From positions 36,417-100,416 of the forward strand of contig AZLU01000086.1 of the NCBI GenBank assembly GCA_002224055.1: 64,000 nucleotides of DNA, in the 5' to 3' direction. Each line of letters begins with the position of its first letter. Within the stretch, counting starts at the first letter, position 1. The DNA comes from Pezizomycotina sp. ARF18 (Eukaryota; Ascomycota). The notes below the pieces were generated by a model. The model worked only from the letters and a program-made list of their open reading frames with translations. It did no database searches and was not told where the DNA came from. Of this stretch, positions 10,213 to 54,401 are shown in pieces. The position numbers were made by a program, and so were the translations under genes.

Positions 10213-13200
10213 ATGGATACCACGAAGAGAGTCAACGGGGGACCATCCCTCGGGGTTGAAGAAAAGATACCCAGGATGGCATCTCCCACTCCACCGGCGT
10301 CGACACCCACTCCAATAGTAATCGGCTCAGCGCCGAAGACATACGGGCCGAAAAGCGCGCCAGCGTGATTGCAACCAACCACGAATGGGACCCGAACATG
10401 CCGACTGAGAAGCGAGAGAGCATCGAGTCCGCCGTCCGCCACCACGACCTCGACGCCGAGCGCGCCATCATCGAAGCCATCGAGGACGATTCCCCGTACC
10501 CCGAGGTCCGCGCCGCCGTCCGTAATTATGATGAAGATGTACCTGCGAGTACCATTCGCGCGTGGGTCCTCGGTCTCATCCTTGCGACCATCGGATCTGG
10601 TGTAAACATGTTGTTCTCCATGCGCAGTCCGCCCATCTCTATCACGTCTACGGTCGCGCAACTGGTCGCTTATCCGCTCGGTCTTGCTTGGGCTAAGTGG
10701 ATGCCAGACTGGAAGTTTAAGACCTTCGTTACGAGTGGTCTCTCAATCCCGGACCGTTCAATATGAAGGAACACACTATCGTTGTCGTCATGAGCAATGC
10801 CTCCTATGCAGGCGGTGCTGTGTACTCTACCGATACCCTCCTCGCTCAGATCGTCTATTACAAACAGATTTCGGCTGGGGCTTCGCCTTACTCTATACGA
10901 TTTCCATGCAATGTATGTATATTTCAAACAAGTCCATTCAACTTAGTTTACTGTCAAGATTACTAACTTATTTGAAGGTATGGGATACGGCCTCGCCGGT
11001 CTTTGCCGTCGCTTCTTGGTAAGTATACCTTTCGCCAATCTCTTCGTTTCCCCTTACTAATTCACCTTCCATCGTTAGGTTTGGCCTGCGTCCATGATTT
11101 GGCCTACCAATCTCATCAACACTACTTTGATGTACACTCTCCACAAGAACGAGAAGCCAGATCCCGCGCAGACAAATGGATGGAGGATCACGAGGTTCAA
11201 ATGGTTCATGGTTCTGGGCATAGCCGGGTAAGAATATAATTTCGCTTGTTCTGCAAGTATTCAATCCTATCAGCCAGGAAACGCAAGGTTTATGGGCAGA
11301 GCTCAAGCCTTAGCTTCGATAATGGAGTGCACAGTAGCTAACACAGTTCAATCTTGCCTAGTTTCATCTGGTACTGGTTCCCCGGATTCATCTTCACCGC
11401 GCTCAGCACTTTCACCTTCGTCACCTGGATCAAGCCTCAGGATGTCGTCGTCAACCAAATCTTCGGCGCGAACTCCGGACTCGGTATCATTCCCATTACT
11501 TTCGATTGGACTCAAATCAGTGGATTCATTGGATCTCCTTTGATCCCTCCTTTCCATGCCATCGCAAACACGATGATCGGACTTTTCTCTTTCTTTCTTA
11601 TTTTGACACCTATTCTCCATTATACCAATACCTGGTAAGCCCTCACCCCGATAAGGGATCTACTCCGAATAAAAGATGGGATTACGAAGGGAACTATATT
11701 GACAAGTTCTTTAGGTATGCGCAATATCTCCCTCTAGTCTCTCAGGCACGTTCGATAATACTGTAAGTACGAACTCTTCGGTCTACCAAAAAAAAAAAAC
11801 AAAAATTCTGAACATGCGACAATTTTATGAAGCCAATTGTAACTTTCGAAAGTTCTTACATTAAAAAGGGCGATCAATGCTGCCTTTTTTCTTTTGAGGT
11901 TGCGTTTCAGTTGTAGAAATGCTAATAAATATCTTGTATGATAGGAGCTGGATACAACACCACCCGGGTCATCACTCCGGAGAAGACATTCGATATGAAC
12001 AAATACAAAGCCTACTCTCCGCTCTAATCTACCGACGACATTTGCTGTATCATATGGCCTCAGCTTCTCGGGTTTCGACTCCTTTGCCATCGTTCTCGTG
12101 ATATATAGTCGTAAAATTATCGATATCTGCGTTGTGTGGACGTACTTCAAAATATCGCATCAGTGCTGGAGTTCGCTAACATTTCTTAACAAATCTCTAG
12201 GTATCGCGGCTACGATTGTTCACACTGGTAAGCTATCATCCATTTGTGCTCAGTCTGAAAGCCCGGAGATTACCTTGCTAATGAATCATATGCATGGGGA
12301 AAAATCTAGCTCTCTTCCACGGCAAGGAAATCTGGTACCGCTTCAAAGTCGCCCGCGAACAAGAAGAGGATGTCCACATGCGCCTTATGAAGAAATACAA
12401 GGATATTCCAGACTGGCAATACGGGGCTCTGTTCGTATGCATGTTTGCTCTCGGCCTTGGTACTGTGCTTGGTTACGATACTCATCTCGCCTGGTGGGCG
12501 TACATTATCTCGCTGCTTTTCGCCGGCGTCTGGCTCGTTCCCGCGGGTATCATTCAAGCTATTACAACATTCAGATTGGCTTGAACGTCTTCACGGAGTT
12601 CGTTATTGGATATATGCAGCCGGGCAAACCGTTGGCCATGATGTTGTTCAAATCTTATGGATACATCTGCATGTCGCAAGCGCTCTACTTTGTCCAAGAC
12701 CTCAAGCTCGGGCACTATATGAAAGTTGCCTCCTAGGTCTCTCTTCTGAGTCAAGTCGTCGCCAGGTGAGTGCCTCCCGAGTCCCTGAAGTCGATAGTGA
12801 TGATTCAGCATTGTTTTTTATTATTACCATTACCACTATTATATTATTATTTTTAGCCGGGGAATTTTCCACTAACAAATCTCAAAACAAAGTATTTGGA
12901 CAAGCATTGTTCAAATCGCGGTTATGTACTGGGCCCTGGGCAACATCAAGGGCGTTTGTACCCCGCCGAAGCAGAGGGTAACCACTTCGTCTGCCCGAAC
13001 GCCCGCGTGTACTTCAGCGCCTCCATCATCTGGGGTCTCCTCGGTCCCAAGCGCATCTTCTCGCCCGGACCCTCTACAGCCCGCTCCTCTGGTTCTTCCT
13101 CATCGGCGCCATCTCCCCGTCATCGTATGGGTCCTCGCGAAGAAATTCCCCCGCAGCCCTATAAGGTACCTTAACATGCCTGTCATCTTCTCCGGCACTG

Positions 13201-13502
13201 GTATGATCCCGCCCTCCACGGCGTACAACTACTTCTCCTGGGGCATCGTCGGCTTCATATTCAATAAGTGGATTAAGGACAGGTACCGCGGCTGGTGGAG
13301 CCACTACAACTACGCCACCAGCGCTGCGCTTGACATCGGTCTGGCGATCGGGACGCTCGTCATTTTCTTCGCTCTGACCATGCCGGGTAAGACCTTGCAC
13401 TGGTGGGGCAACGATGTCGTCGCTAAGACTGTCGACGCTGCGGGTGCCGTTCGGGCGACTGTTCCGGATGGCAGCACCTTCGGACCTTCTACCTGGCAGT
13501 AG
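10213..13502 (+). CDS. OPT-family oligopeptide transporter, nine exons, about 820 residues
   Basis: Proton-coupled uptake of small peptides or related solutes at the plasma membrane is the known role of OPT proteins. The reading frame shows the acidic N-terminal region ending in [14 protein letters not shown], the family signature [28 protein letters not shown] and [11 protein letters not shown] blocks, LFHGKEIW, and [18 protein letters not shown]. The C-terminal block contains [23 protein letters not shown] and [23 protein letters not shown]. Probable introns: 10913-10977, 11019-11078, 11228-11361, 11635-11714, 11763-11944, about 12108-12200, 12228-12309, 12766-12892, several with TACTAAC-like branch points. 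Start ATG 10213 was chosen because its frame, after one corrected base, runs directly into the conserved N-terminus. About eleven single-base frame changes are needed (near 10261, 10732, 10867, 11742, 12024, 12562, 12728, 12748, 12963, 13069, 13118), mostly one base lost from a short homopolymer. Conservation is otherwise complete, so assembly error is likelier than a pseudogene. Confidence 0.93.
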
Positions 13503-19848: not shown

Positions 19849-21073
19849 ATGGGTGTCATAAAACCTATGCAAGCGGTCGTAAGTAATTCGTATATTTCCC
19901 TCAAGCCATTTGGATGACTGCGGAGCTAACGCACGTTTTTCACTCTTTAGAACGTAGAGTGGGGGCTGATGGCGTTGGCCGTGCCCCTCGTCGGTGCTCG
20001 CTGCTACTTTGCGATCACCCGCAAAGGCAGGCTCATGTGGTCCGACTGGTTTGTCATCGCGGCCTGGGTGATGTTCGCCTTCCAGACGGCGGCAGACTAC
20101 ACCATGCGGCGGTACTACATCGGCGGTTCCCAAGTTCACGTTGTGCAGGCCGGTGACACCCTTGGCTCCGTCGTCGCGGGCCACAACTGGGAGGAGACGA
20201 TACTGATCGCGAAGGTAAACAATCTACTTGTCACCTTTCAAAAGCCTTCCAGGATTTTCGGGCTAACAGTTGTTCGTATCAGATGAAATACGCCGAAAAC
20301 GTCACCTATTACAGCTGCATGTACTTCGTGAAATTCTCCTGGCTATGCTTCTTCCAGGATCTCCTCCCCAGAACCCTCCCCATCCTCCGAAAGGTCTACT
20401 GGGTTGTCACCGTCGTCACCGTCATCGGGTGGATCTATACCACTCTCGTTGAGGCCGTCTACTGCTGGCCGGTCAGCAGGCACTGGGCCGTGAAGCCAGG
20501 AGAGCCCTTCTGCGCTAATGCTGACTGGACCTGGATCTCCATCATGACCATCCACTCCATCACCGACGGCGTAATCTACATCCTCCCAATTCTCATGCTC
20601 CGTACCGTTCACAGTCTCTCCGTCAAGAACCGCTTCGCCGTCGCCGCGATCTTCAGTCTCGGTTTCATTTGCGTCGCATGGGCCATCATCATGCAGGTCG
20701 AGAATCTCTACTCTGTCCCCGGATCCGTCGTCTGCGTTACCGGCGCGTTCGAACAATTCTGGGCCGTCTTCGTCGTCTGCCTGCCCGCCATCAAATCGCT
20801 TCTCGCCGGACGCGTTCCAGTACTTGCAAAGTCGGCCTGGACCAGCGTTTCCGCATCCAGGGCTTCTCCACCACTGCCAAATCGTACAACGTCAGCAACA
20901 TCGATCCCACGGCTACCACCGCTTCTAGACGCGATTGGACGAAGGAGGAAATCATCTCGACTACCAGGAGTGTCGACCAGGATCAGGAGTGCGGTTCCTC
21001 CTCGAAGGGCTTGGTGAGGGACGAGACGACTGAAATCGACATGAGGAACATGAGGATGGCGGATCAATGTTAA
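19849..21073 (+). CDS. PTH11-like 'rhodopsin domain' integral membrane protein
   Basis: Three exons (19849-19878, 19951-20214, 20283-21073) encode about 360 residues with about seven membrane segments. Features of the fungal rhodopsin-domain family are visible. They include an early TM pair around CYFAITRKGRLMWSDW and VIAAWVMFAF, a conserved Cys pair (YYSCMYF and VYCWPVSRHW), FCANADWTWISIMTIHSITDG with YILPILMLR, and the last two helices (FAVAAIFSLGFICVAWAIIM; EQFWAVFVVCLPAIKSLLAG). The predicted cytoplasmic tail needs one frame change near 20815-20825 to reach SYNVSNIDPTATTASRRDW and end in DQC at 21071. Without it the tail is a low-quality Pro/Ser/Arg sequence ending at 21017. Related proteins act as surface sensors in filamentous fungi; the ligand here is unknown. 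The 10-codon first exon is supported by good GTAAGT and TTTAG splice signals. Confidence 0.85.
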
Positions 21074-23801
21074 GGGATGTTTAAGATTGGAGGTTTTTCT
21101 TTTTGATTATATTGTTCCATTATCCAATATACCCATTCTCTATATACTTATTTACTTTGAAGGGCTCACGACTACGTCGGAGGGAACAGACATAATATAC
21201 TCGGCGTTCGGCGGGAAGGGACTGGGAAAGATGAGAGCGGCATTTCTCTTCTTATTTATTCATTACTTTAATACCCATTTGCTAGAAACATCACGAGTTC
21301 TCTGAGCATGCTGTAAATCGTATGCATAGATCGAGACTTCATGAAGATTTCTAGCTTGTAATCAATACGACTGGTGACGATACGAACAAAAATAACAATA
21401 TCATAAAAATCCTTTTTGTACTTTTTCTTGACGAAAGATCCTATGCTCCTGAGAAGTTCACGATGTTCCTATAATGATTATGAGCTACTGGTACTCTGAA
21501 ACCCGAGCATGTTGCAAGTAAAGAAGGCCTTTAGCTTGCCAACGGTTATGAACTCGGAATTTCATGGCCTGTTTTGGCCCATTGGTATCTCATATTCCGG
21601 AATTTCTAGCTGTCTGCACCCAGGATTCTTCCATTCCAGTGCTATGGTCTCCTCCGAATGGCCCACTAAGGGAGACTTTTGTCTCCTAGATCTTTCTAAT
21701 AAAGCGAGTACTGGACGCCATCCAACAAGCCGCGGCGTACTATGTGCGCCGTTTAGTACACTTTAACGTTTAGTCTGGCCATTCTAATCCAAAATCCCCG
21801 TTCTCTGATCCTACGAGTAATCTATATCCGGATTGTTTATTCAATGCAGCCATGGACGAAAGGAACCTATGTCTTCACTTTTTCTTCCTCTATCTCGGGG
21901 TTACAGTTTCTACCGTGATTAAAAGCTTGAACTTGAGGCGGTTCAAGACCCCAAGGAGTCAGCACTCCTCTTTTCCATTTGCCTGAGGACCGCTTTCCTT
22001 TAGCTTTAGCTCACGATCAAGAAGAATCTTCTATAATACTCAACGAGCCAGAACATGGTGCCTCAACCGGGACAGGTCTATAGGATTTGTTAAGTTCCAC
22101 GACATGCCGTCTCAATCTGCCATTGCCTTTTTCGAACGATGATCATCAAGCCTTTTTAGCGTTAAACCTTGGTAAAATTAAAAACCTTAAGAAGCAGGTT
22201 TTCCCCACTATCTCGATTAGGACCATAAAGTGAGGAGAAGCGATTGAGCGTATCAACGCCCATGCCGATCGCCAATAAGTGGTTATTGAAATCCCCAGTA
22301 GCGGCCATACCGAACATTTAGAAATTGAATTACAATTTACAAGTATGATAAGGGCAAACCCTGCTCGTTAGCAGTAACCTTTCTATACAACATCTCATAC
22401 TACGTCTCAATGGCCAGGCGAATTCCGGGCGTCGTCTCAAGTAAACACTAACAGCGACCGCCGAGCTTTTTAACGATATTCCAAAGATCTTCGGTCTCTC
22501 CTCAAGGCTCACGGCAAAGCTCTGTGCCCTTCAGTCCCACGGCTTGATATCCAGTTATTGAGTGAAGATTCAACTAGTTGTGAATCGTCTCCTAAATACA
22601 GAGGGGACAACCAGACAGTCGAAATACGCCATGGAATATTAGCAGAAGGTTCAGTAGGGCCTTGATGAAAGCGAAAACGCCATAAAGATCAGCCTGCCGA
22701 ATGGCTTTGCAGCCCTACTGGGGGAGATTAAATATCGTGGCCCTGCCTAATCACCGGCGTATCCCAGGATAATCATGGCGCCATATATATATATATGATT
22801 ATTAACGCAAGTTAATGCTGTATTATGTATAGAACCTTGATATCTAGTCAACTAGGGCTAGTCTCATTCGGTAGAGCGCTTTCCTTAGCGGCGGCGGGCG
22901 CGAGCTGCCGAGCCTCATATCAAGATTTCGCTGCACAGAAGATTCGCCAGGAGATTCGCCAGGAGATTCACTACCAGTCTAGTGCAATATAAGTCAGAGA
23001 AGGTGCTTTTCTCGAATTTTATGAGTTAAACCGCAGAAATTGAAGAGAAACACTTTTACCATGGCTCTGTTTCCAGCTGCCAGGTTCACCATTTCGAGCC
23101 CTAAATTAGGAACCTATTCTCCGCTGAGACGCGACAACTCAGGCTTCTCTCAGATTGGAAACGTCGTGGGTCCTACGTAAAAAGAAATTGAAGATCGAGA
23201 CTGCTTACAATTTGTTCCATCTCCATGAGCCCCGTCGAAGTCTTGCCGTATGTTTTTATTCGGGCCGCTTCTGCATGAGTGGCTGAGGAGTCGAAATCTT
23301 CCAGCTTCAAGCCCCCAATCAGGTCTGCCGTTCTTTTCCGACCAATCGCGTCAATACGGTTAACGGAAACGGTTGCTTCCGCCGGGGCCTAGCCCCAGCG
23401 AAAGCGCCGCGAAAGATTTGAAAGCTTATATCTCCAGACTCATGATCAGTCTCTCAAGCCCATCCTGGGATACGCTCTGAGCCCCTATTTGCTGTTTCTT
23501 TTTGTGCCCTGAAATAGCCCTGCGGCTTGAGAAAGCGTCTGAAGCAAGACGCCACCACGCTCGGATTCGCTCGTTGATTCCGCCTCTCGCATGGAAGATG
23601 AACTTAGGGCGTTCTGGACTTCCACGTTCTTCTCGAGAGTGATACGTAAATCGTACGATTAAAGGGACACAAGGACGGGTGATCATTACACAGTCCTTCA
23701 CCCCGTCACTTCTCAGGAGTTAGCTATACTCGTCTTTCCGCTCCCTCAACTTCAAGGCTTCTTCCTCATATAATTAATAGCAATGAAACGAAGAGGCCAT
23801 C
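21074..23801. other. Intergenic, AT-rich spacer with small repeats
   Basis: No supported gene. It contains an (AT)n tract at about 22783-22796, a tRNA-like A-box segment at 22853-22920, and a short tandem GATTCGCCAGGA at 22941-22968. A TATA-like stretch (TATAAT, about 23768) sits just before the next gene. Confidence 0.4.
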
Positions 23802-24837
23802 ATGGCCAGCAATACCACAACTTCCGACAACGGTACCACGTACTGCGTCACAGCAAAGTATACAGACCTCGCCAATTTCTTCGTGGTGAACCTAATCACC
23901 CATGCGCTAACCACGGTGCTTCCCGCGGGTTTCTCGGTGTGGACCACCCTTGAGCTCATGTTCATATCTATCATGATGCCCTGCACCGGCGCCGTACGCG
24001 CGGCCAAGGCAATCTCGCACGCCGCCATTTGTGGCGGTAGCGACCTAGAAAAGGCGGCCCGAGCGGGTGCGCTGTGTGTTATCACTAGAACAGAAGACTG
24101 GTTCGAGATGGAGGAAAATAAAGGGAAGCTTGAAGGACAGATGAGGGGGCTCGCGGGAACGGTGCTGTAATCGCCGGTTCCCATTGGACGGGTGAGGGAA
24201 AACCGGGAGCTCGCGCACACCGACTCTTACCCTTGGACGAAGGGCACCCCAGCACCTCCCTCTACAAGGTATACTCCGTGATCTTCCCATCTATTCTCCC
24301 TTCTTTCACGGTGTTTAACTAACTAAGAACTTTCCCCAGGCCGTCAAGTCTCAGAACCATACCTACTACCGCACCTCCGAGAGCAGAAACCTTGGCCACC
24401 TAGCGTATCGGAAAGCCACCTTTATAGAAAAGTTCTTCCTGAAACTCAGCCTCATCCTGGCCGTTCTCACGCTCCTCGCGCCGTACATCATCATCTACAT
24501 CCTGACAAACTTCTCCACCGGTCACTCGGAGGCGAGGTTGCGCAAAGTGTTCCTCATCTGGCTCGTCGGCGCAACGTACGCCGACTTCGCCCTAGGCCTG
24601 TATAACTACGGCATCGTCGAGCGGTTTTTCAACCTGCTAAGGATCGTCATCGAACGCCGTCGCAGCGGCGGCAAGCCGTAGGTCGCAACGCCGCTTACTA
24701 GCACGCTCCAGACGGCGGTCTGGAGTGCTTTCAGTGCTGGGATAATATACTGGCGTGTCGAAGGCGTGGCGATGAAGATCATGGGTCTAGGATTTGCAAA
24801 GAAAGGTAGTAGTAGAAACTCACCGGGAGGCTACTAG
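23802..24837 (+). CDS. Compact paralogue of a fungal multi-TM protein family, central region missing
   Basis: The N-terminal part matches the paralogue at 38.4 kb almost residue for residue: NFFVVNLITHALTTVLPAG, LELMFISIMMPCTGAVRAAK, ISHAAICGG and RAGALCVITRTEDW. The sequence then jumps, with one frame change near 24150-24170, to NGAVIAGS and TSLYK. An intron (24269-24339, CTAAC branch point) leads to SQNHTYYR, EKFFLKLSLILAVLTLLAPY and LIWLVGATYADFALGLYNYG, all matched in the paralogue. Compared with that gene, about 200 codons of the middle are absent. A TAG at 24679 interrupts the frame after RRRSGGKP, yet the same frame stays open to 24837 and matches the last TM segment of the paralogue (AVWSAFSAGIIYW). 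It is therefore either a shortened gene ending at 24681 or a copy with one nonsense base. The family is conserved and membrane-bound, with no assigned function that I know. Confidence 0.6.
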
Positions 24838-27180: not shown

Positions 27181-28521
27181 TTACCACTGGCGGCTGCTCC
27201 TGTAGGAACCGTCGTCACCGTAAGCGCCATTTCCCCGGTAAGAGCCATCATCGCTTCCGTAGCCGCTGTTACCGAGGTAAGAGCCATCAGAGTCGCCGCC
27301 GTTGTAGGAGCCGTCGTTGTCAGAGCCCGGATTGTAAGAGCCGTCGTCACCACCGAAGTTGCCGCCGAAGTCTCCGCCGTTTTGGTCACCGCCGTTGCTG
27401 CCAGGTCCGTAAGGGTTTCCGGGGAAGCCACCGTTCTGGTCTCCACCGTTCTGGTCTCCACCGGATTGGTCGCCGCCGGATTGGTCGCCGCCGTCCTGGC
27501 TGCCGTCGTCGGAGCCGGAGCCACCTGGAGAGCCGGCGCCGGGACCGTACGGGTTGCCGCCGGAAGGACCGGAAGGAGGGGAAGGAGGAGAAGGAGGAGC
27601 GGTAGGTCCTGGGTTCGGCATGGTCATGAGCGTAGTCGGCGAAGGAACGGGTGCTCCGGGCCGTAAGGGTTTCCACCCTGGTTTCCTCCCGGAGGAGGAG
27701 GGGAGATCCACCTTGGTTTCCACCCGGAGGAGATCCGCCGTTACCGCCCGGAGATCCGCCGGTGTTACCACCAGGAGGAGATCCGCCGGTGTTACCTCCA
27801 GGGCTACCGCCGAGACCGCTACCGCCACCGGGGTAGCTGCACTGTCCGGATCCGGACTTTCCGTCAGATGCAGACGGCTGCTTCCCGCTCCACATGCCAC
27901 CGTAGGTAACCTCCTGCCCCGGTTCTGGGAAACAACCTCATCTCCTTCGGCTGTATGGCAGGATCCGTGCCCCGGCATGTTCGCGATGAAGATTCCTGGG
28001 GCGTTGAAGTTCGCCCTCTTAGCGCGACCGTTGCCTTGGATGGTGACGGGGGCGCAGTTCATGTACATCTCCCTGTTACCGACCTTGTTGAACCACGTCC
28101 AGGCGAACAGGGCGTTGCCACTGGGGGCGCTGGCGGGATGGTGAACTTGTACTCCTTCTCGAGCGGGCAGCCGCCGACCATGCTCTTGATGACCTGGAAG
28201 GACTGCCCATATCGTAGGACAGCGAAAGCTGGCAGGAGCCGCCACCGTGGGTGGCCGAACCGGTAAGGGACATGGAGTATTCCTTTCCAGCCTGGTAAGT
28301 AGCAGTAGGGTTCGAAAGACCGTCCTTGTGGTATCCTTGCAGGGGAAGTTGGAGCCGTCCGAATTCAGCGGGGAGGTCATACTGTAGTCGTAGTTGTCGG
28401 AGCCGTAGTTCTTGTTGGACTTGGAGCGGAAGGGAGGGGGGTTGGTCATCTCCATGTGCGCCATGGCGGTGGAGGTGAGCGCGGTAGCCGCGGCGAGCTT
28501 GAGGAGCCAGGAAGCGGACAT
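27181..28521 (-). CDS. AA11-type lytic polysaccharide monooxygenase with Gly/Asn/Asp-rich tail
   Basis: AA11 enzymes are secreted copper monooxygenases that cleave chitin oxidatively. The signal peptide ends ...TSTAMA and is followed at once by the mature N-terminal His of [13 protein letters not shown], the first copper-brace residue. The second copper His is in [16 protein letters not shown]. Further family blocks are [66 protein letters not shown] and a [13 protein letters not shown] element. After CSYPGGGSG the protein becomes a linker of Gly, Pro, Asn and Ser repeats. It finishes with five or more DGSY units and stops at 27181. Total about 447 residues. Frame changes are inferred near 28345, 28205, 28130, 27925 and within the tail. 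The catalytic residues are intact, so I regard it as functional DNA with consensus errors. It lies 1.2 kb upstream of the PhiA-like gene, same strand. Confidence 0.88.
27190..27380 (-). repeat. DGSY-encoding repeat at the LPMO C-terminus
   Basis: The last 60 or so codons contain the tetrapeptide DGSY at least five times, spaced by 5-10 Gly/Asn/Ser residues. The DNA repeats are imperfect (GGAGCCATCG-like units read on plus). Confidence 0.7.
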
Positions 28522-31500
28522 TTTGATTTGCTTGAGAGGTTAAAAAGTATAGATAAACTATTATATATTTGGTTTTCGGGTTGGTATTTTTGCCTCTAAA
28601 GGATTCCTCGAGTTGATGATTCTCTGGATTTCTGATATTGAAGTCGTTTATGTTTCGAAGTTTTGGTTTGAATAACTGGAAGTCTATAAAGCGAAGCAGT
28701 GTGCTAAACGATTGTAAGAATGGTAGAACGAGCCTGAAGCGTTCGAAAAGAAAGGGTTTCGCGATATATCAATATCGTCTGAAGAACAGAAAGATGGAAA
28801 TGAAATGAACAGCGACCAAGAGCGCCTTGAAAATGTCTATTTGCAAAAGAGAGAAAAGAAAAACCAGAAAAACGCTCGAAGAATGTATAGAGAATGTAGA
28901 AAGATTGAAAGCTGCTTGAGGAACGAAAAAGAAGCGGTTAAGGAGCGACGGAAACTCCCTTTATATATTCATGATCATATCTGTTCCTCTACTATCAACC
29001 GATCTTGACCGAAGGGTGAACGGATGCTACTACGTCCCTTCGTAGAAGCCAGCCGGGCGCCACCCTGCAGGAACTGTAAAAGAATGTCAATATCGATAAG
29101 ATCGAAGTTTGAACGATAGGGATTTACTTTGATGAAAAATTGGCAGGGACGGGTAATTCCAGAAGGTAGCCGCTTACAATACGTACCATACCATACCCAT
29201 GGCGCAGATATTGGGGGACACTACTCCTCAGCTGTTTAGCATTACATGATACACAGCTGAGGAAAAAAACCCACCGGAGTGGCTTGGCTCTCTGGACGTA
29301 AAAACGGGTTTGAATAATCCATTTTATTATTATTACCTCTTTGCCGGGGATTGATGTGGTTTAACTGAAACGTTAGGACGGCAAGGGTACTACTACCTCG
29401 TTCACTCTCATTACCCCATACTTTTTGGATATTCGCCGTATTCGAGTCCGTAAGGGTTCAAACGAAGGATCTGCCCGAAAGGCGAAGTTCTCTTCAGCTT
29501 TCGACGATCGCCATACTCGGCAGGTTTACTGTTCGAGTTTCGCGGTAAAAACGTTCTGTTAGACTCGAAATAGTGACCGATCATCAGAGGCTGAAAACAG
29601 TTCCGATATCTGAGCGAGGAGAAAGGGGTCCGCTATTGAAGTAAAATTACTTCCTCTCCATAACATGGCGTGCTTTCTCTTCCTTCGACCTGCTACCGTC
29701 GCGTAGAATAACGACATATAGTCCAAAATGGAAAGTGGCGACGTCGAGAGCAGTAATTCGATACGGGGGGGTTTGATAGTTTGATAGTGAAAGGGAAGAG
29801 GCTTTGTCGCAGGTTGTCAGACCTCAGCCCGCCGAGACAAGCAAAAATACGGGCACACACTAAACCCTCATGGGCACTTTTTTTTTTTTTAATAATACGG
29901 GCCTCCTGTACCCTCCTCCCTTTCTTATCGGCATCCTTGATCGGCAACGTTCTTCTTTAATGTTACATTTTTAGCAAATGATCTGCCGGTTAGCCATGAT
30001 AGCCGATCTTCTGTACCCGGTTAGACGTGTCTTTCCCAACCCTCTTTGCTTCGTACTCTGGTGCCTCAAGCACGAGAACTAGTCAGTCTTTTACGAGTTT
30101 GCTGGAAGAAATTCGGAATATCTATTCAAGAATGCTAGCCTGCGGCATCCGACATTGCGGGTAGCTATCGCTCGTCTTGGACTTTACCGCGAAGGCTTCG
30201 AGGCTGGCGATGTCTCTAAGCCCTGTTCATGGTTTAGTACGATCAGCTCCGCGCACGAATATATTCAGCGCACGGACAATTATGCACATATGCAGAGATA
30301 TGGTTGAGCAACGTGACAGCTGCTGCCGAATATCGACTGAGCAAGGCTTTAAGATTCTCAGGGACCATGAAGAGAATCGGATGATAACCCGTTATCATGA
30401 GATATCCTTGATCGATAACGAATGGAAAACCACCACCTCTCGTAGCCGCTATCATCTCATGCAAGCGCTAGAGTATTAAGGACCGGTACTGTACTATCTG
30501 CTTCGTGAGATTCTAGGTAAATCCCAGCTTGGTTATTTCTTCAATTAAATATCGTCGTTCGTCCCTGTGGAAATCTCTTTCTCATTAGAACTCGGCGAAC
30601 GAATGATGTGACGTTAATTAATCAATATTTTCCATTACCATGTTGAAATGGCCGTCCAATTCGAGTTGAGCTTGGAGGGCTTACTTCGGACACGTTTTCT
30701 GTATTAGTAAGGTTGAGAATTTCATTCGAGATAAATTGAGCGACAGAAGATGTGTAGGATGATACCGTTTCACCAGCCGTCCCAGTGGAGAAAAACGCTC
30801 AACATGGCCAAGGAAGATCGAGATAATTTTCTTTGAGCCTTCAATTTTACTCTTTCAGTCGGGTTGACCGCTTAGTTTTCATTACTGAGGGTTTAGTCAG
30901 TCCAAGGCCACAGCGCCAACTTTGAGGTTTTCTAGAAGCCTTCCTGAATTTTCCAGTGCTCCACCAGAAAGGGAAATGGTGATGAGACACTGTTGAAGAG
31001 ATCATAGAAAAAATGAAACGAGCAAGAAACCCTCAATCTGAGTAGTTGAATGAACGAGAAACCTGCTGCCGTCTTGTCAAAAATCCATAACCGTAGGTTG
31101 GTCATCAATAGCATTAAAACTCATTCTCATAGAGATGAGTTTCCGGGAACCAATCAACCGTTATAACTTATTGCGACGTTTCCTAACCTAATCGAAAAGG
31201 GACTCTGGTATTTTGCATAGAGGGAGAAGAACTCAGAACATCTCTCGGACGAATACCGAATAGACTAGGTGCTTCTGTATCGAATTGGGCGATGGAACGT
31301 CTTCGATTTTAACCGTGATCGCCGCAGTTGTGAATTTCTCATGGAACACCCCCACAGGACCAGGCCCCAAGAGCCTCGAGGTTCTCGACAGCTCATTTCC
31401 AATCTTCCTCGCGCTTATATATCCCAAGTAGTAAAGTGCTAATGCCAAAGAGATGTCAGGTAATTATTACAATCGCCCTGAAATTTTCCGAATGATCCTG

Positions 31501-38439: not shown

Positions 38440-40212
38440 ATGAATTCCACCGAATCAGACAGCACCGGTAGGGGAATTGCAGACCCGCGCAGCTCAATGA
38501 TATCCTCAATTTCTTCATCGTCAACATGGTCACGCACGCCCTGACCACGGTCCTCCGGCCGGCTGCTCCGTCTGGACGACGTTGGAACTGATGTTCATCT
38601 CCATCATGATGCCGTGCGCCGGAGTCGTCAGGGCCGCCAAAGCCATCTCCCACGCCGCTATATTTGGGGGCAGCGCCCTAGAGCGGGCAGCGAGAGCAGG
38701 TGCCTCTGCGTTATCACGAGGACGGACGAATGGGAGCAGCTTTACGGGAACCAGAACAAGCCGGAAGGCCAAGTCACCCGCGAGCGGCGGAAAGAGGAAG
38801 CGAAGGGGAGAGACTGGAGAAGGAAGCGAAAAGACTACCACGCCGGTAAGCCAAAGCTCTTAGCGATACTTTCTCCTCTAATAAGTTCTGGTCCAGAAGA
38901 ACCTAGCTACATCCCGAGTCGCACGGTATAGATGATTTAGTAGCAGCACAAGAGTCCCAAACGAATATAAGGGCCTCCCGGCTCTTCACCGCACCGCACC
39001 GCCTGGAAATGCTGAAGACATCGATATATAAGTACGCGATCCATGGGCAGGTCGAGCTGGTCGACGGGTATGGCTGGTCGACGGTATGACATTGTACCGC
39101 TCCCCGTTCGTCGAGGTGGTAGACATCAAGCCGGCAGAATTGAACCCTACCGCGCTCGCGTCGAAAAACAGTCTCGTCAAAGCAGCGTCGCGATCGTGCA
39201 AACGGTGAACGGCGCTATGGCGGTCGCTAGGAGCTCGAAGACTCCAGATTATGATCCACCTGCTTCAGCCAAGGACCCTCCCGAGTGGTACTACTATTCA
39301 GAGGGCTTGTTGGATGCGTACCAGTACCTCGCGTACACCGTCACCGTGATCCCGTTCGTGCTCATGTCGCTGCTCAACCTCATGGCGGCGCTGACGTCGA
39401 GGAGTATTCCAGCGTCTTCCTGGTCGAGAGCAGTGTTTCCGATGAAGCGAGAGCGAACGGCTCTACCATCGTCGGCGCCATCGTAGGGTCAAGGAACGCG
39501 ATCCGACAGAGAAATCCGAGAGCTCTCACCCTTGGACAAAAAAGCCACCCGTATGGCATCGCTTTACAAGGTATTTACTCATCAGGACCAGCACAGTAAC
39601 TAATTCACTCAACGCCCTTTAGATTATTATGTACTTACGCGTTGTTTTTGGAAACTGCTACTAGATCATCAACTCCCATAACCACACCTACTACCGCGCC
39701 GAGGACTGCAAAAGGCTCGGCAACCTGGTGCATCGCCAGGCTAGCCCACGGAGAAACATTTCCTGAAGCTCAGCATCTTCCTTGCGGTCCTGACTCTGCT
39801 CGCTCCATACATCATCATATACCTCATCACAGGTTTTAGCTTAGCAGATTCCAACCCGTCGTACTACACCAAAGGGATGCAAGTCGTGTTCTTCATCTGG
39901 CTGGCCGGCGCACGTGGTCAGCGCCGGCCTCGGGCTGTACAACATGGAGTCATCGAGCGGTTCTTCCACGAGATTAGAGACTTGGCAAGGAAGAGGAGAT
40001 CTGGCCGCACCCGCCTCGAGTGGTTCAAGATGGTCTTCCATAACGTGCTGCAGCTGATCCTTTACAGCGCTATCTGCGTGGGTGTTCTTTGGTGGTATTA
40101 TTACGTCGCGTGGGAGATCTTTGATTTCGGACTCTGTGAGAGGCCTAAGGGAAAGCCAGGCCTACGCCATCTAGTTGATCTCTGGGCCCGGAGAAACGTT
40201 CGGATGAGATAA
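38440..40212 (+). CDS. Full-length member of a conserved multi-TM protein family of unknown function
   Basis: About 540 residues over three exons. The N-terminus reads, after a lost G and a lost C, NCRPAQLNDILNFF, MVTHALTTVLPAG, LELMFISIMMPCAGVVRAAK, HAAIFGG and GALCVITRTDEW. A first intron opens at GTAAGC (38846). The middle contains KYAIHGQVELVDGYG, FVEVVDIKPAEL, SVAIVQTVNGAMAVARS, EWYYYSEGLLDAYQYLAYTV, IPFVLMSLLNLMAAL and SSVFLVESSVSDEA. A second intron (39571-39664) precedes IINSHNHTYYRAED. The end has KHFLKLSIFLAVLTLLAPY, MQVVFFIWLAG and a last helix (LILYSAICVGVLWWYYYVAW), stopping at 40210. This layout (two N-terminal helices, soluble middle, repeated helices) is one I recall from uncharacterised ascomycete proteins. 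At least six frame changes are needed. The gene at 23.8 kb is a shortened paralogue. Confidence 0.75.
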
Positions 40213-42088: not shown

Positions 42089-43091
42089 GGGCAGGGTTTT
42101 GAAGAACTATCCGAATAAGAACGTGGCAAGAGCGCAGTGTAGTCAACGATGAAATTACTCAGTACGGAAGATATAGCCTTTTTTAGATGTATAATCTATA
42201 TCAAAGTCCACTCGGCGGAGTAGACGTCAAAACTACGAGAATATCTCGGTTTTCTTTCTAAATGATGCGGAAATATCAGTTAACTCTGTATCTTCCATCT
42301 CACACCTCGTCACCGTTCTGGGAATTAAAGTTCTGCGAGTACACGTGATATCCCCAAGCTTCTGAAGAACGACCTTCGGCCTTCCTCATCTCAGCCGCAT
42401 GGCATCCTGTTATCATGTCAAATCTCCTCTTATCGACATCCCACCAGTACTAGCGCTTCTCAGGGCAAAGCTTTGTGATCTTCTGGAGGGAAGAAAGGAA
42501 GAAGCATTTTACGTCTTCGTTGTTCTCGCGTGCTTTCGGTGTGGTAGTATGCAGCCTGCATGCAGGGCAATTGCTTGGAGGTGAACCGCTGATCCCAAAA
42601 GCTTGGCCCCCAACTCTATCGCTAAACGATGTCATTGCCCAATTCTGAATCGTGAAGGGAAAAAGGTAGTGAATAGGTCGATAATGACATGAAGATGCAG
42701 CGATTCAATCATGAGAGCTAAAGGGGTCGCCATAGAGCAAGTTTCACGAAGATACTGACTGATTTGTTTTGTCTGGTGGAATTTTTGAATTTCAAAAAGA
42801 CTGAAAAGCTGTAAACTAATTACAATGGCGAAAAACAAAAACTGTGCTCCCAATGCCGAAAAGAAAGAAAACAAGAACATGGCCTATAGACAATGAATGA
42901 CATGAGAAAAGGAATACGTTTTTTTTTGTATGAACCCTTCGCAGAATGTATGGATATATTTGTTGAAAACAAGGATATAATGAAATGCTTCTCCTCCAAG
43001 CTCTTTCTAGCTTCCACTCAGCTCAGCTCGACTCCACTTCCTCAAGACGACCTGCCATTTACTCCAAACGGCTCGCTGTGGGGCGATCCGC
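42089..43091. other. Intergenic
   Basis: Nothing firmly supported. A 61-codon frame at 42399-42584 (LALLRAKLCDLLEGRKEEAF) looks coding-like and may be a fragment of a further gene of the F-box-like group. Confidence 0.35.
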
Positions 43092-43428
43092 TTAGTAGTA
43101 GTACCAGCTGTTGCGGTGTCCGTCCCAGCGGCGGTTCCAGTACCAGCGACCGTTCCAGTAGTACCTGCCGTTGTGTCCGTAGTGGTTGCGGCCATAGTCG
43201 TCGCGGTCGTGGCCGTAGTTGCCGCCGTAGTTGCCGCCGTAGTTGCTGCCGCCGCCGTAGTAGTCGCGCTTCTCGAGGGAGCCGCGTTGGGCTCGGGAGC
43301 GGGCTCAGGCGCGGGGTAAGCTTCAGGCTCCGGAGCAGGAGCGGGAACAGGCTCGGGTTCGGCGTAAGGAGCCGGAGCGGCGAGGACACCGCAGACGAGG
43401 TAAGAACAGTGACAATGGCGACCTTCAT
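43092..43428 (-). CDS. Secreted Kex2-type precursor with Gly/Asn/Tyr/Trp-rich mature peptide
   Basis: The precursor begins MKVAIVTVLT...GVLAAPAPYAEPEP, a signal peptide followed by an Ala/Pro/Glu-rich pro-region (PVPAPAPEPEAYPAPEPAPE). After it comes LEKR, a classic Kex2 dibasic cleavage site, and then DYYGGGSNYGGNYGGNYG, HDRDDYGRN, GRYYWNGRWYWNRRWDGHRN and SWYYY, stop. The mature part (about 58 residues) is almost only Gly, Asn, Tyr, Trp, Arg, His and Asp, with no Cys. Two or three lost bases break the frame: one after VLTS, and one between the pro-region and LEKR. The intact frames on each side leave little doubt about the design. It resembles the protein at 48.3 kb in layout, in the MKVAI start and in the NGRWY motif. 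Function unknown; Tyr/Trp-rich Cys-free peptides can be structural or adhesive wall components, or effectors. That is inference. Confidence 0.72.
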
Positions 43429-43598
43429 TGTGATCGGTGTGGTTGTTTTTGTTGTTTGTTTGAAAAGGAGGAAAGATGGTTTTTTGTTTGGAGGATTGCT
43501 TTGTATTGTAGATTGTTGATTGAGGATTGTTGTTCTGATTGCTGTGCTGAGTGATGATGATAAAAAAAAGTTCGATTGAGGAGGGAGGAAGGGTGAGG

Positions 43599-43605
43599 TT
43601 TTATA
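43599..43605 (-). promoter_or_regulatory. TATA box of the minus-strand secreted-peptide gene
   Basis: TATAAAA on the minus strand, 171 bp upstream of the ATG at 43428, close to the spacing seen for the related gene at 48305. Confidence 0.5.
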
Positions 43606-46600
43606 GACGAAATGATGAGCTTTGAATTTCGATATTCGAATAGCTTTTGGGCGGTGTCGTGAACAGTAAGTTCAGCGCGATGCGGGTTTACTATCAGCTC
43701 TCACATATTGTTTCCTGTCACCTCTCGATTGTTTGTCGTTAGCTTCATGGGGCTGAAGCTCCGCGTGTGCTCGAGCCCTTGATCTCTCTTGGTATTCACA
43801 AAGAGCAAGAATGTTCTATCATGATAGCCGAGTGTGTAAGATGATAGACAATGTTAACATCTGTCCGTGTGTTGAGAAGACCAAAAGAACAAACGGTGAC
43901 AATTACAAATATGAGCAGTCTCACTCGACGTTGAAGTTCTTTAGTTACCCGCTAAATAAGCTCAGGGCTGAGTCCTGATCTCTTTCATGGTTGTGTTTTC
44001 ACAAGACGACAATGTAGGGCTGGAAAATGGTGCATTTCCTATTTCCAGCCGTAAGAAACTAAACGAAAAACGGCTTAATAAACATTCAACATTCTCTTCG
44101 TTAATTGTCTAAAAATCGTCTAGTTTATCGAGACCTCCATTATTGAATAGCCGGTGACAGCAAAGTCTTAAAAGTCCTGGCAAAGTATTTTTCCAGTCTG
44201 CCATGTATAGAGGGTGACAATGCGTCTGTGCTCACCAGGATGACAGCCGCGATAGTTAGGATGGCAAGGGAAGGAAGACTCAGCCCCAGACAGCGGAATA
44301 TAGTTTGTGAGCAATCGTTAGAAATGAGGGGAAAAGACTGCCCAGAAAAATGCTTAGCCAGGATGCATTTTTAGCACGTTGAGATCGGCTCCCGGAGCAG
44401 CACACTGCTTGTCTCCGATTGGCTAGTCGAGGCAGAATCCCGGTGTGCCTCCCACTAAGAAAATTAGCGGGAGAGTGACAAATACTGCGATTAGCCCATT
44501 CTATTTCTTTCTCGCGAATGCTTGGAGGCCAGAGCGCGGCTGCTATCATTCGTCTCCAAGAACATAACGACAAGGTACCCTCTCGGCTAAGTTATAGTGA
44601 GTGGATACCTGGATTCCATTTCTCGTCTCTCACACCCTCTTAGAAATCCACTTCGCCAATGTTTAGGGCTGAAGGCTGTGAGTGGGGAAAAACGAAATAG
44701 AAAACCGAACAACAAAGGAATCTCTATCCCTGCCATAATTTTTTCTTACATGCGTCTGTCTCTCTTCAGCCTCACCAACTCATTCTTACTTGACATGGCA
44801 TCATCGTGCTCGACTCTTTTACCGTTCTACCGGCCGATTTTCCGGTCTGAAGGGTTCGGCGTATTAGTCAGATCTTTGGTCAGCGTCCCGATGCCGGGAA
44901 GCAGAGCTTCAAATTGAACCGGGAACCGAGCCGGAGCTAGGCTTACCCAGACTGAATGTCTGGGTTCGTCTAGACGCGAATGACCTTTCTCACTATCGAT
45001 ACACTCTTGACCTTAGATACACTCTTGACCTTACCCTTTAGCTCTTTATGGGATATTTTCACTGGCGATTCTACCAACTGACGCACGTGGAGCTCAATAG
45101 TGCCAGACATTCCTGACACCCCCAAAAAAAAACCAACTACAGCATCACCTAAACTACAGCCTCACCTAATCCCGTAAAAATCGGCCAGCGGAACGGTTCA
45201 TTTCCGATGCTTTCGCGCACATTGAGTAGCAAATTCCTTCGCTAAGGCAAGACCTATTTCGCGGTAGTATTCTGGATGGGACTTAGAAACCCGACTCTAA
45301 GGCGTCTTCAGCCTCCAGCTCAGGAGGCTCCATACCTATGTTTCCAACTAATAACATTTACTAAGCACACAGACGGATGTATGTGTTCAGTCTTGATATA
45401 TGATACATCACGTTATGCTTATTTCAGAAAGCATCAGTACATGGTGGATACTATGTCTAGAATATTTGTCTGAGTGGTCTGAGTCGATGATAGCGTGAAG
45501 CTGACTAAAACGAATCTGATATTATTGCGTTGTCCTCCCTGTTAATACCATGTCTGTAGCGCATGTCCTAATACACAAACTTGAAAGACCACTACCTAGG
45601 TCCTAATTTTAGAGCAAAAGAACTTTATCTGCATCGACTGTGTTTATTCTAATAGAACATACTGCTATTGCTACTATTACGAGGATCGGGTTAATGCTAT
45701 TTTCACGTTTTATACTTTTGATGAGAAGTTCATGTTGAAGTCCACCTGGGTATAGTAAAGACGCTTATGATGCAGTACATTTTCCACCCACCTAGGTTCC
45801 GTCAAAAATAAATGGGGGTTTTTTTTTAAGTTTTTTTTTTGGGTCAAAAATTGTTGTATAAGCGCATACGTTAGATACTAGCAGTATCACAATACATACA
45901 CACGACTTGGTCTATGAGTGATATGAACCAGGCAACAGTTGAAAACAGTCGTCCATGATGGAAACACAAGATCACAACTTTGCAAATCTGGTCCTGGTAA
46001 CCTACCTTTGTGAGAGGATTACGTACCCTCACGATTTAGAGGCGAAAACTCCTAGCAATCTCTGGGTAAATCAGTGCTACTGCGATTGCTGGGCGTCGTG
46101 CACATGTGTAATTCTCCCAAGACCCCTTTTTGCACCACAAGGATTTCTTTCCAGGCTCATGGTACTTGAAGCGTAAAAGCCTCATTAAATTATCGCCCAG
46201 ACGGTATTTGTTTCCAGGCCCAATAATATACGTTCAGTCTGATGTAGAGGCTCTGATTCCGCTACGTCCGTCCGTCGAATGAGCTTCTTGCTGATTGACC
46301 CCAACCACCCTCTAAACCCGACAGGCGGTCTATAGCAAGGCCCGATGCCTAAGCACACTGAGCCTGTCATGTTAGGATTCAATGATATGCTCGGTCTAGA
46401 TCAACGCCGCTTCCAATGCATCCTGCTCAAAAAGAAAAGTGAATAAAAAACAACATCTAAATGTAGAAGAAAGCACGGATCCGACACTTCCGAATGATAA
46501 TCCTGAGCTAATAGAGGTGTCTCGCACTGACTGACTCCGGTACCACGTCCTTACATCTGCATCCAAGTTTTCATCGAACGGGGGATAATCCTGTCACCGC

Positions 46601-48131
46601 CGTCTTACTGTTCACTGGACGATCCTTCACATATTGAATATCGTTTTTCTAAATTTGTCCGTTCAGGAACGGAGAACTCAGGGAGGACTTCCCCGATGTC
46701 TCAAAATCCCTCATTGTTGTTTACTTCACCCTCAAGCATTCCGATGTGTTTGATGCTGATAGCTTCGATTCCGCTTGCATCGTAAGATCGCAATCATGAC
46801 GATCCTGTCACTATTCATTTCCTGTTTTTTTCTTTCCATGGCTTTTGTTGTTCCTATAGTTTCTATAATTGTTTGCTTTTATGAAAGCGGACGAACGATT
46901 CCCCCGTAATTCCACGTCTAGCCGTCATAGAAAGCAGGAAAGCCTCGCGGAGTCGGATTTAAGACACTTCAGTGTTATTCTGTCGTGATTGTATCGATTG
47001 TATAATACCGTCGCGAAGGATCGCTTTTTTTTTTTTTTGTATATTATTCGCTTGGATTATTTCTATGGATCCCCTTGTTGTACCAGCAAAACCTTGTTCC
47101 ACTCGCCAAGTTAAGCGGGGAGCATCCTGTTCACGGCACAACAAGGTACCCGGAAACATCCGAGACAAAATTAGGCACGATGTTTTTTTTTCTGGCTATT
47201 TGTTGCAAAACAAGGACGAGATTCAGACGTTGCTTCTGCAGGAAGGCTCCCAGAACTCATAGTAAACTCACGAAAATAGAAACAATTCTGATCGTTGAGT
47301 ACGTCCTGAGCGTTGAACATGCGTCGCGAATCCTTCATTGTGTCTTTCACGCGCGTCGGTTCGTTCGGAAATGAAGGGGAAAACAAGGCTTGGACAAAAT
47401 GTCAAGTAATACTATTGATCGTAATAATACTTTAGAGTGATGAATTTGGAATATACATGACTGAAAAGTCTATATGCCTCTCTTTGCTCCGAGTCCTCCT
47501 GTTAGGCATTCTCTTTCGAATAGTAAGCAGGTATGCACGGTGCCCTGCCACGATTCGATACGGTATAACTTTTCATTTGCTGGCAGCCTCAATGCCGCCC
47601 CTCATAATTATCCTGCTCCGAGACTGCCGACGCCAGATCCGTGGGAAATGGTGTGCTCGTTTAGTCGCTATTTGCACCAAGGATGAGGTTGAAGACTGCA
47701 AGTACAATGCAAATACAGTCTATACTAGTTCCTCTCAAAGAACAATAAAATTGTATACGTAAATAATAGAAGTCTACCATAATTTGATTCCTATTATAGG
47801 ACTAGTCAGTAAGTATAGAGCGGAATTTCTAATAGGTTTCTATTTTCTGTGCGGCGAGTGAGCTAAGCCTGACATTGGCTTAGTCCAGTTCATTGTTTTG
47901 ATTTGCCGGAAGCCGAAAAACATCCCTACCAAGCTACTCTCTTGGAAAACCTCTCCCCAACCACGTCGTCGTACGTGATACAATATCAAATCATTTTGTC
48001 GTAGCTCGCAAATTCGACGTGTACTACATGCGGCGATAGTCGAGAGGCTTGTACTTACAACCCAAAAGGATGATAACTAGTCCAGTATACTGGGAACATC
48101 TATTTCGTGAAGACTCCAGCATAGAGATTTG
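43606..48131. other. Intergenic region between the two secreted-peptide genes
   Basis: About 4.5 kb with no supported gene. It has a tandem 18-bp repeat (GATACACTCTTGACCTTA) at about 44997-45032, T-runs at 45820-45840 and a T17 run at about 47022-47038. The frame at 47457-47762 is hydrophobic in its first half but otherwise unsupported. Confidence 0.4.
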
Positions 48132-48142
48132 TCTATATAATC
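48132..48142 (+). promoter_or_regulatory. TATA box of the plus-strand secreted-peptide gene
   Basis: TCTATATAATC, about 165-170 bp before the ATG at 48305, followed by a CT-rich leader, an arrangement common in strongly expressed fungal genes. Confidence 0.55.
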
Positions 48143-48304
48143 CCCTTCATCCTCCCCTCCTGAAAGATCTTTTTCACTCAGCATCCAGCAACGATCTCAT
48201 CGATCATCTTCTGTCTCCTCCAACAATCTTCCACATCTTCCAAAAAACAAACAATCGTTAAAGCCTTTTCTGCAAAAGCTTACAAAAAACAAAAACCATC
48301 CACA

Positions 48305-48758
48305 ATGAAGGTAGCCATCATCGCTTCCGTCTTCGCTCTCGCTGCCGGCGTCATCGCCGCGCCCGCTCCCATTGCTGAGCCTGAAGCTGCCCCAGCTCCC
48401 GCTCCGGTCGCTGAACCGGTCGCCGTTGCCGAGCCTGTAGCCGTTGCCGAGCCCGTCGCTGAAATCGAGGCCCGCGGCCGCGGCCGCTACTACCACAACA
48501 ACAGGTACTGGAACTACTACTGGAACGGTGACTACTATGATTACTACTGGAATGGTAACTACTGGAGGTACAGGTGAACGACGACTACTACAACTACCAT
48601 GACGGTAACAACTACTGGAAGTACAGGTGGAACGACGATTATTACAATTACCACGATGGCACAACTACTGGAGGTACAGGTGGAACAACAACTATTACAA
48701 CTGGTACCACGGTGGCAAGTACTACAGGCACTACAACAACGGTCGCTGGTACAACTAA
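48305..48758 (+). CDS. Secreted repeat protein, Tyr/Trp/Asn-rich, with Ala/Pro/Glu pro-region
   Basis: The precursor starts MKVAIIASVFALAAGVIAAP (signal peptide) and continues with an Ala/Pro/Glu/Val pro-region containing three EPVA-type repeats. EIEARGRGR follows, a basic processing-type sequence, and then the mature chain YYHNNRYWNYYWNGDYYDYY. Next come three tandem copies of an 18-residue unit (NYWRYRWNDDYYNYHDGN and variants) and an end HYNNGRWYN, stop at 48756-48758. A single lost G at about 48576 makes an apparent early stop at 48575-48577, and a second loss near 48662 shifts the frame again. With both allowed, the repeats line up exactly. No Cys is present. About 152 residues. The layout matches the gene at 43.1 kb (minus). 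The family is not one I recognise. Confidence 0.75.
48557..48718 (+). repeat. Three tandem 54-bp coding repeats
   Basis: Units begin at 48557, 48610 and 48663 with AACTACTGG. Each encodes about 18 residues. The observed lengths of 53, 53 and 54 bp fit one base lost in each of the first two units. Confidence 0.8.
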
Positions 48759-54282: not shown

Positions 54283-54390
54283 TTTTACTAAATCACGATT
54301 ACAGGGCTTAGGCGAAACATGACCCCCCATTGTCTCTTTTACTAATCACGATTACAGAGGCTTAGGCGGAAACATGACCCCCATTGCTCT
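54283..54390. repeat. Near-perfect 54-bp tandem duplication
   Basis: Copies at 54283-54336 and 54337-54390 share TTTTACTAA(A)TCACGATTACAG, CTTAGGC and AAACATGACCCCC. They differ almost only by homopolymer lengths (AAA/AA, C6/C5, G/GG). It lies just beyond the stop of the minus-strand F-box-like gene. Confidence 0.8.
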
Positions 54391-54401
54391 CCGTTCCATC
54401 C

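What the first reader, a model, noticed from the sequence alone, without database searches (positions are those of the whole stretch)
43092..48758. Divergent pair of Cys-free Tyr/Trp/Asn-rich secreted precursors
Two genes 4.9 kb apart on opposite strands share a design: a MKVAI signal peptide, an Ala/Pro/Glu pro-region, a basic cleavage site (LEKR in one, EARGRGR in the other), then a mature chain made mainly of Tyr, Trp, Asn, Gly and Arg with a common NGRWY motif. Each has a TATA box about 170 bp upstream. I know no described family with this composition. Tyr/Trp-rich peptides could cross-link, stick to surfaces or act as effectors.
Basis: partly seen in the sequence, partly recalled or inferred. 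Interest (0 to 1): 0.78.

Follow-up and report, generated by a model that had tools for sequence, protein, structure and literature searches.

The report
Fungal secreted Tyr/Trp hairpin-repeat protein family
The two genes appear to be real members of a small family of secreted fungal proteins built from stretches very rich in tyrosine and tryptophan, perhaps folding into sticky sheet-like surfaces outside the cell; their broken reading frames are most likely errors of the draft genome.

Summary
Both genes are where reported (ATG 43428 to stop 43092, minus; ATG 48305 to stop 48758, plus), each split over three frames. HSP70 genes of the same assembly are split as badly (about 20 intron-less frame changes in about 10 kb), so the breaks fit draft-assembly indels. 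The "pair" is part of at least five loci in this 46-Mb fungal genome. They share a signal-like start (MKV in four, MKL in one), a Glu/Pro/Ala pro-region, a Kex2-like [IL]E[KRA]R junction (clear in four, plausible in the fifth), an aromatic Cys-free mature part and a CTATAWA box 147-178 bp upstream (5 of 5). Gene 2 and its C23 paralogue carry an 18-residue repeat, roughly YWKYxWNGDYYNYxxxGx, with protein-level constraint (pS 0.76, pN 0.33 over 45 pairs), modelled at low confidence as a beta-hairpin meander. Gene 1 belongs by start, leader, pro-region, junction and promoter; its mature part resembles gene 2 hardly beyond composition. No credible Pfam or PDB relative for the pieces tested. Best reading: Kex2-matured aromatic hairpin protein that binds or coats surfaces. 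Function untested.

The parts
43092..43428 (-). gene 1: coding span, ATG 43428 to stop 43092-43094, split over three frames
43600..43605 (-). TATA box of gene 1 (context GTCTATAAAA), 177 bp upstream of the ATG
43402..43428 (-). gene 1 signal-peptide start MKVAIVTVL
   Evidence: read by eye, no predictor available
43277..43396 (-). gene 1 end of signal peptide and Pro/Glu/Ala pro-region, in a second frame
43266..43277 (-). gene 1 Kex2-like junction LEKR, in the third frame
   Evidence: motif rule from PMC8528282
43095..43265 (-). gene 1 mature part, 57 residues, Gly/Tyr-rich then Tyr/Trp/Arg-rich, no Cys
   Evidence: AlphaFold2 one hairpin, mean pLDDT 57.5
48134..48139 (+). TATA box of gene 2 (context GTCTATATAA), 171 bp upstream of the ATG
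48305..48758 (+). gene 2: coding span, ATG to stop, split over three frames
48305..48361 (+). gene 2 signal peptide MKVAIIASVFALAAGVIAA
   Evidence: read by eye, no predictor available
48362..48463 (+). gene 2 pro-region, Ala/Pro/Glu/Val-rich
48464..48487 (+). gene 2 junction IEAR followed by GRGR
   Evidence: same place as in paralogues
48488..48574 (+). gene 2 mature part, first piece, with 18-residue repeat unit 1 (48506-48559) and the first half of unit 2
   Evidence: modelled as four-strand meander, mean pLDDT 62.4
48577..48660 (+). gene 2 mature part, second piece (second half of unit 2 and unit 3)
48663..48758 (+). gene 2 mature part, third piece (repeat unit 4, partial last unit, stop)

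Best explanation
These are precursors of small secreted proteins. A signal peptide sends them to the secretory pathway. A Glu/Pro/Ala-rich, probably disordered pro-region accompanies the aromatic part and is cut off by a kexin-type protease at [IL]E[KRA]R. The mature part of gene 2 and of the C23 paralogue, an array of 18-residue units (strand, NG turn, strand, G turn), forms an antiparallel beta-meander. One face is lined with Trp2, Tyr4, Trp6, Tyr11 and Tyr13 of each unit; the other is mostly Lys/Arg/Asn, with Tyr1 and Tyr10. It works outside the cell as an aromatic surface-binding or coating protein, sticking to wall glycans or to a partner or substratum surface, perhaps cross-linked later through Tyr. 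Shown here: five loci of one design, shared promoter element and mostly shared leaders, a conserved repeat, protein-level constraint. Modelled at low confidence: the hairpin fold. Inferred: secretion, cleavage, binding, and that gene 1, which lacks the 18-residue unit, does the same kind of job.
For: Five loci with the same layout. CTATAWA at 147-178 bp upstream in 5 of 5, against 21 of 1,876 ATGs of the window with CTATAWA at 134-185 bp (the five share descent, so they are not independent). 180-bp leaders alike in 7 of 10 pairs (score reached by at most 2 of 1,000 shuffles). Repeat units: Trp2 in 9 of 9, Tyr11 in 10 of 10, Tyr/Phe4 in 9 of 9, aromatic at 13 in 9 of 10 and at 6 in 7 of 9; none at 3, 7, 8, 9, 12 and 16-18. 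Gene 2 units 2 and 3 differ by 6 synonymous and 0 non-synonymous changes over 10 codons; all 45 pairs pS 0.76, pN 0.33. AlphaFold2 gives strands 6-9, 12-17, 20-25 and 28-32 with two-residue turns. One locus with a kexin-type P domain in the genome. Precedents for aromatic hairpin repeats as binding modules: choline-binding repeats (PMC4929436, passages seen) and the Bap1 57-residue adhesive loop (PMC12965690, abstract and outline seen).
Against: Model confidence is low (mean pLDDT 62.4, pTM 0.26, single sequence), and the PDB fold search gave 15 matches at E 10 or less, none at 0.001 (best 5.8). Gene 1 shows no 18-residue unit by eye, one modelled hairpin, and a mature part that finds only itself in the genome. 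The junction IEAR of gene 2 and C23 has Ala at P2, not among the top P2 residues listed in PMC8528282. Leaders of gene 1-C23 and C67b-C23 are at chance (250 and 706 of 1,000). Codon bias does not set the family apart (76-97% C-ending in four members, against 79% for window transporter and rhodopsin pieces and 64-94% for HSP70 pieces), so high expression is not shown. No ligand is known and no transcript was seen.
Confidence: 0.42

Rival explanations
1. Self-assembling hyphal coat, working like the repellents of Ustilago maydis: the aromatic beta-segments polymerise into amyloid-like fibrils on hyphae or spores.
For: Repeated short strands, Asn/Tyr/Gly-rich, Cys-free; Rep1 is a Kex2-processed precursor of amyloid-like surface fibrils (PMC8528282, part 1 of 3 read).
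Against: No internal KR/RR/KK/RK pairs in the gene 2 and C23 mature pieces counted, so no release of many short peptides; many charged residues, placed by the modelled alternation on one face.
Confidence: 0.2
2. Tyr-based cross-linked structural protein: tyrosinase or peroxidase oxidises the tyrosines outside the cell and hardens a wall or glue layer, as in trematode eggshell or mussel proteins (recalled analogues).
For: 20-31% Tyr in the 7 pieces counted, with Lys, His and Arg; 18 tyrosinase-domain matches on 9 contigs of the genome, a lower bound.
Against: None of these matches lies on C86, C67 or C23; near-invariant Trp and a fixed pattern suggest a fold rather than mere Tyr content.
Confidence: 0.15
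3. Secreted antimicrobial or partner-directed peptides, gene 1 resembling glycine/tyrosine-rich cationic peptides.
For: Net charge +3 to +5 in 6 of 7 pieces, some of which include junction residues; Trp and Arg content; a removable pro-region.
Against: One gene 2 piece has net charge -4; the regular repeat is more than such an activity is known to need (inference); no evidence on lifestyle.
Confidence: 0.13
4. Relics: the genes are decaying pseudogenes, or low-complexity DNA without product.
For: All five loci have broken frames, with more breaks per kb than the HSP70 average; an uninterrupted 208-residue antisense ORF covers gene 1.
Against: HSP70 loci are broken too (about 20 frame changes without intron-sized gap in about 10 kb); synonymous changes dominate between repeats; promoter element and most leaders are shared.
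Confidence: 0.07

Closest known systems
Kex2-processed pro-domain (K2PP) secreted proteins (SnTox3 type; PMC8528282)
   Same: N-terminal pro-region with disorder-promoting residues, KR/RR/LxxR-type junction, one mature chain
Kex2-processed repeat proteins (KEPs; PMC6339444, PMC7329392)
   Same: Secreted precursor with tandem repeats; Tyr-rich KEP peptides are noted in Rhizophagus irregularis (PMC6339444, passage seen)
   Different: No KR/RR/KK between the repeats of gene 2 and C23, so the array is not cut into peptides
Choline-binding repeats / Choline_bind_1 (PF01473)
   Same: Aromatic-rich units of about 20 residues, hairpin with an NG turn and a WYY strand (PMC4929436, passages seen)
   Different: Fungal, 18 residues, more Tyr; no PF01473 match in the family
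Bap1 57-residue adhesive loop of Vibrio biofilms (PMC12965690)
   Same: Aromatic-rich core that becomes a beta-hairpin, with pseudo-repeats adding avidity (abstract)
   Different: Part of a bacterial adhesin; no sequence relation tested or claimed
Dikaritin RiPP precursors (ustiloxin type)
   Same: Fungal secreted precursor with Tyr-containing repeats
   Different: No UstYa match on C86, C67 or C23; no Kex2-bounded short cores in gene 2 and C23

Membership tests
K2PP-type secreted precursor | N-terminal signal peptide | tested here: inconclusive
   MKV start, hydrophobic core and Ala-rich end read by eye in gene 2; no predictor available; in gene 1, C67b and C23 the signal region itself meets a frame break
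K2PP-type secreted precursor | Kex2 motif (KR, RR or LxxR) after a disorder-promoting stretch in the first half | tested here: met
   LEKR in gene 1, IERR in C67a and LERR in one frame of C67b; gene 2 and C23 have only IEAR, a weaker variant; rule
K2PP-type secreted precursor | Pro-domain absent from the secreted form | not testable with these tools
   needs secretome mass spectrometry
KEP | In-silico cleavage at KR/RR (or KK) giving at least four fragments, with at least three repeats | tested here: not met
   none in the three gene 2 and two C23 pieces; two in gene 1 and two in C67a, one of each being the junction; C67b not counted; rule from PMC6339444 passages
Dikaritin RiPP (ustiloxin type) | UstYa/DUF3328 gene beside the precursor | tested here: not met
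   four matches, three on C87 and one on C96, none on C86, C67 or C23
Choline_bind_1 (PF01473) | Sequence match to the repeat model | tested here: not met
   absent from hmmscan of 7 pieces at E 10; own-genome search gave 2 matches below the cut-off, on C27 and C5
Any Pfam family | Match above the curated cut-off | tested here: not met
   0 of 7 pieces; C67b pieces and the gene 1 pro-region were not scanned
Ustilago repellent-like amyloid | Amyloid-like fibrils on hyphae | not testable with these tools
   needs purified protein

The most novel reading that the evidence does not exclude
A previously undescribed fungal module: tandem 18-residue Tyr/Trp hairpins, convergent with bacterial choline- and glucan-binding repeats, released by a kexin and used as an aromatic, Cys-free glue or lectin-like coat, possibly towards an algal or other partner if the fungus proves to be lichen-forming.
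Probability: 0.25. Interest if true: 0.68.

Novelty: new variant of a known kind. Interest (0 to 1): 0.5.

Why it matters
A compact, cysteine-free repeat in which Trp and Tyr occupy fixed places of a predicted hairpin would be a new natural design for a secreted binding or adhesive protein in fungi. Low-complexity filters and broken draft frames could hide such genes from annotation, so families of this kind may be undercounted. The five loci give a directly testable set.

Tried and rejected
A sixth candidate, C399:5470-5601 (E 0.02), was read and dropped: no signal-like start and no comparable aromatic stretch, with stops in all frames around it. The antisense 208-residue ORF at 42893-43519 was set aside because promoter, leader, start and pro-region similarity follow the minus strand; it was not searched on its own.

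Mimicry of nematode peptides (YGG-like) was looked up; the listings of two searches showed no paper on such fungal precursors. Searches for Tyr-rich or aromatic-rich fungal secreted proteins listed none that matches (one search returned no paper). A search on lichen secretomes was seen as a listing only. The library is open-access, so none of this shows absence from print.

Post-stop DNA of the five loci was compared: 0 of 10 pairs stand out (best 99 of 1,000 shuffles). Codon bias did not separate the family. The PDB fold search of the 33-residue model gave nothing credible; the gene 1 model was not searched. A scan of viral contigs found no relative.
Full report
What is there. The window lies in a 46.4-Mb genome of 408 contigs (G000:C86:36417-100416). 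A fungal rhodopsin domain, an AA11-like LPMO and eukaryotic rDNA make it a fungus, probably a filamentous ascomycete (inference). Gene 1 runs on the minus strand from ATG 43428 to a stop ending at 43092, gene 2 on the plus strand from ATG 48305 to a stop ending at 48758. Their spans, 337 and 454 bp, are not multiples of three; each protein reads on only by changing frame twice.

Broken frames. HSP70 served as a yardstick. Its 38 scored pieces lie on seven contigs; 20 neighbouring pieces change frame with less than 45 bp between them, too little for an intron, over about 10.0 kb. Eight changes with larger gaps were not counted. The count is approximate: pieces with in-frame stops were kept, and some overlapping pieces on C70 and C3 may be shadows of one match. 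The cleanest case, C49, has 6 changes in 1,783 bp. At about 2 per kb a gene of 340-450 bp would be broken about once; two breaks each is somewhat more, but not remarkable. The breaks are therefore most likely draft errors. They were not mended.

Family. A single-frame piece of gene 2 found two loci on C67 (E 1.5e-7 and 7.9e-4) and one on C23 (best piece E 0.003); the C23 repeat in turn finds gene 2 at 3.8e-4. The gene 1 mature piece finds only itself. The five loci begin MKV (four) or MKL (C23), have an Ala/Pro/Glu pro-region and a Tyr-rich part without Cys in the 7 pieces counted. The junction reads LEKR in gene 1, IEAR in gene 2 and C23, and IERR in C67a; in C67b, LERR lies at the expected place in one frame. 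Each has CTATAWA upstream of the ATG, at 177, 171, 160, 147 and 178 bp (gene 1, gene 2, C67a, C67b, C23). Among 1,876 ATGs of the window, 86 have TATAWA and 21 have CTATAWA at 134-185 bp. The 180-bp leaders resemble one another beyond block shuffles in 7 of 10 pairs (at most 2 of 1,000 shuffles reach the score); C67a-C23 is reached by 13 of 1,000, and gene 1-C23 and C67b-C23 are at chance (250 and 706 of 1,000). Gene 2 and C23 share a run of 21 identical bases in the leader. The mature part of gene 1 is not demonstrably homologous to the others: in its 8 comparisons with pieces of the other members, 14 to 468 of 500 composition-kept shuffles reach the score. Its membership rests on start, leader, pro-region, junction and promoter.

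Repeat. Gene 2 and C23 share an 18-residue unit. Ten units or parts of units were aligned; left out were the first half of gene 2's unit 2, the C23 unit that spans a break, and the partial last unit of each gene. The columns read Y-W-[KR]-Y-x-W-x-G-[DN]-Y-Y-N-Y-x-x-x-G-x, with Trp2 in 9 of 9 and Tyr11 in 10 of 10. Codon comparison shows protein-level constraint: units 2 and 3 of gene 2 differ by 6 synonymous and 0 non-synonymous changes in 10 codons, and all 45 pairs together give pS 0.76 and pN 0.33. Pairs are not independent and synonymous sites are near saturation, so this is a direction, not a rate.

Fold. AlphaFold2 on a 33-residue single-frame piece of gene 2 gave four strands with two-residue turns (mean pLDDT 62.4, pTM 0.26). 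On the 57-residue gene 1 mature part it gave one hairpin at residues 34-43 (mean pLDDT 57.5; best ten-residue block 79). Both are single-sequence models. If the meander is right, positions 2, 4, 6, 11 and 13 share one face (inference from alternation), making it almost fully aromatic, while positions 3, 5, 7, 12 and 14 make the other face mostly polar. PDB sequence searches of 4 pieces (gene 1, gene 2 first piece, both C23 pieces) gave nothing below E 0.19.

Function. The secretory design, one locus with a kexin-type P domain (C56) and a regular aromatic face argue for an extracellular binding or coating protein. Two known systems use aromatic hairpins in this way: choline-binding repeats (about 20 residues, NG turn, WYY strand; PMC4929436, passages) and the Bap1 adhesive loop (PMC12965690, abstract). 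The family is not a choline-binding repeat by sequence. It is not a KEP, because no KR/RR/KK sites divide the repeats of gene 2 and C23 (rule in PMC6339444, passages). It is not a dikaritin cluster, because UstYa matches lie only on C87 and C96. It fits the wider class of Kex2-processed pro-domain proteins (PMC8528282, first of three parts read), with IEAR as a weaker motif in two members. Tyrosinase matches occur on nine contigs, none of them a family contig, so tanning by tyrosinase is possible but unsupported.

Lead on lifestyle. The rDNA locus L047 carries a group I intron between the SSU match and the ITS (Rfam E 2.3e-17). A conserved SSU end (recalled motif) follows it, so it seems to interrupt the 3' end of the SSU gene. 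Such introns are common in lichen-forming fungi (recalled) but occur elsewhere, for instance in Phialophora (PMC3160393, passages). A lichen-forming host is a lead only.

Verdict. The genes are real, ordinary in their precursor design, and unusual in the mature repeat. The most surprising claim, a new aromatic hairpin glue, is open and testable.

Noticed in passing
27184-28539 (-): AA11-like lytic polysaccharide monooxygenase with a long Gly/Asp/Asn/Ser-rich tail; a 50-residue N-terminal piece matches PDB 7p3u (named 'Endoglucanase, putative') at E 9.5e-12 and the AA11 entry 4mah weakly (E 0.15); the longer ORF gave no Pfam match. Frames also look broken.
   Followed up: partly
10260-13499 (+): OPT oligopeptide transporter in several pieces; two pieces matched PF03169.
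   Followed up: partly
20157-21014 (+): Fungal rhodopsin domain protein, PF20684, E 2.5e-17.
   Followed up: partly
23787-24167 and 38501-38860 (+): Two stretches encode closely similar peptide segments (SVWTTLELMFISIMMPC...), suggesting duplicated genes inside the window (by eye).
   Followed up: no
42893-43519 (+): Uninterrupted 208-residue ORF antisense to gene 1; probably a by-product of the GC-rich codons of gene 1.
   Followed up: partly
3137-3740: Stretch reading as N in the window.
   Followed up: no
54283-54391: Tandem duplication of a unit of about 54 bp, 91% matches.
   Followed up: no
L047:816-1095 (G000:C189): Group I intron between the SSU match and the ITS; four 5.8S matches 11 to 22 kb apart on C189.
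   Followed up: partly
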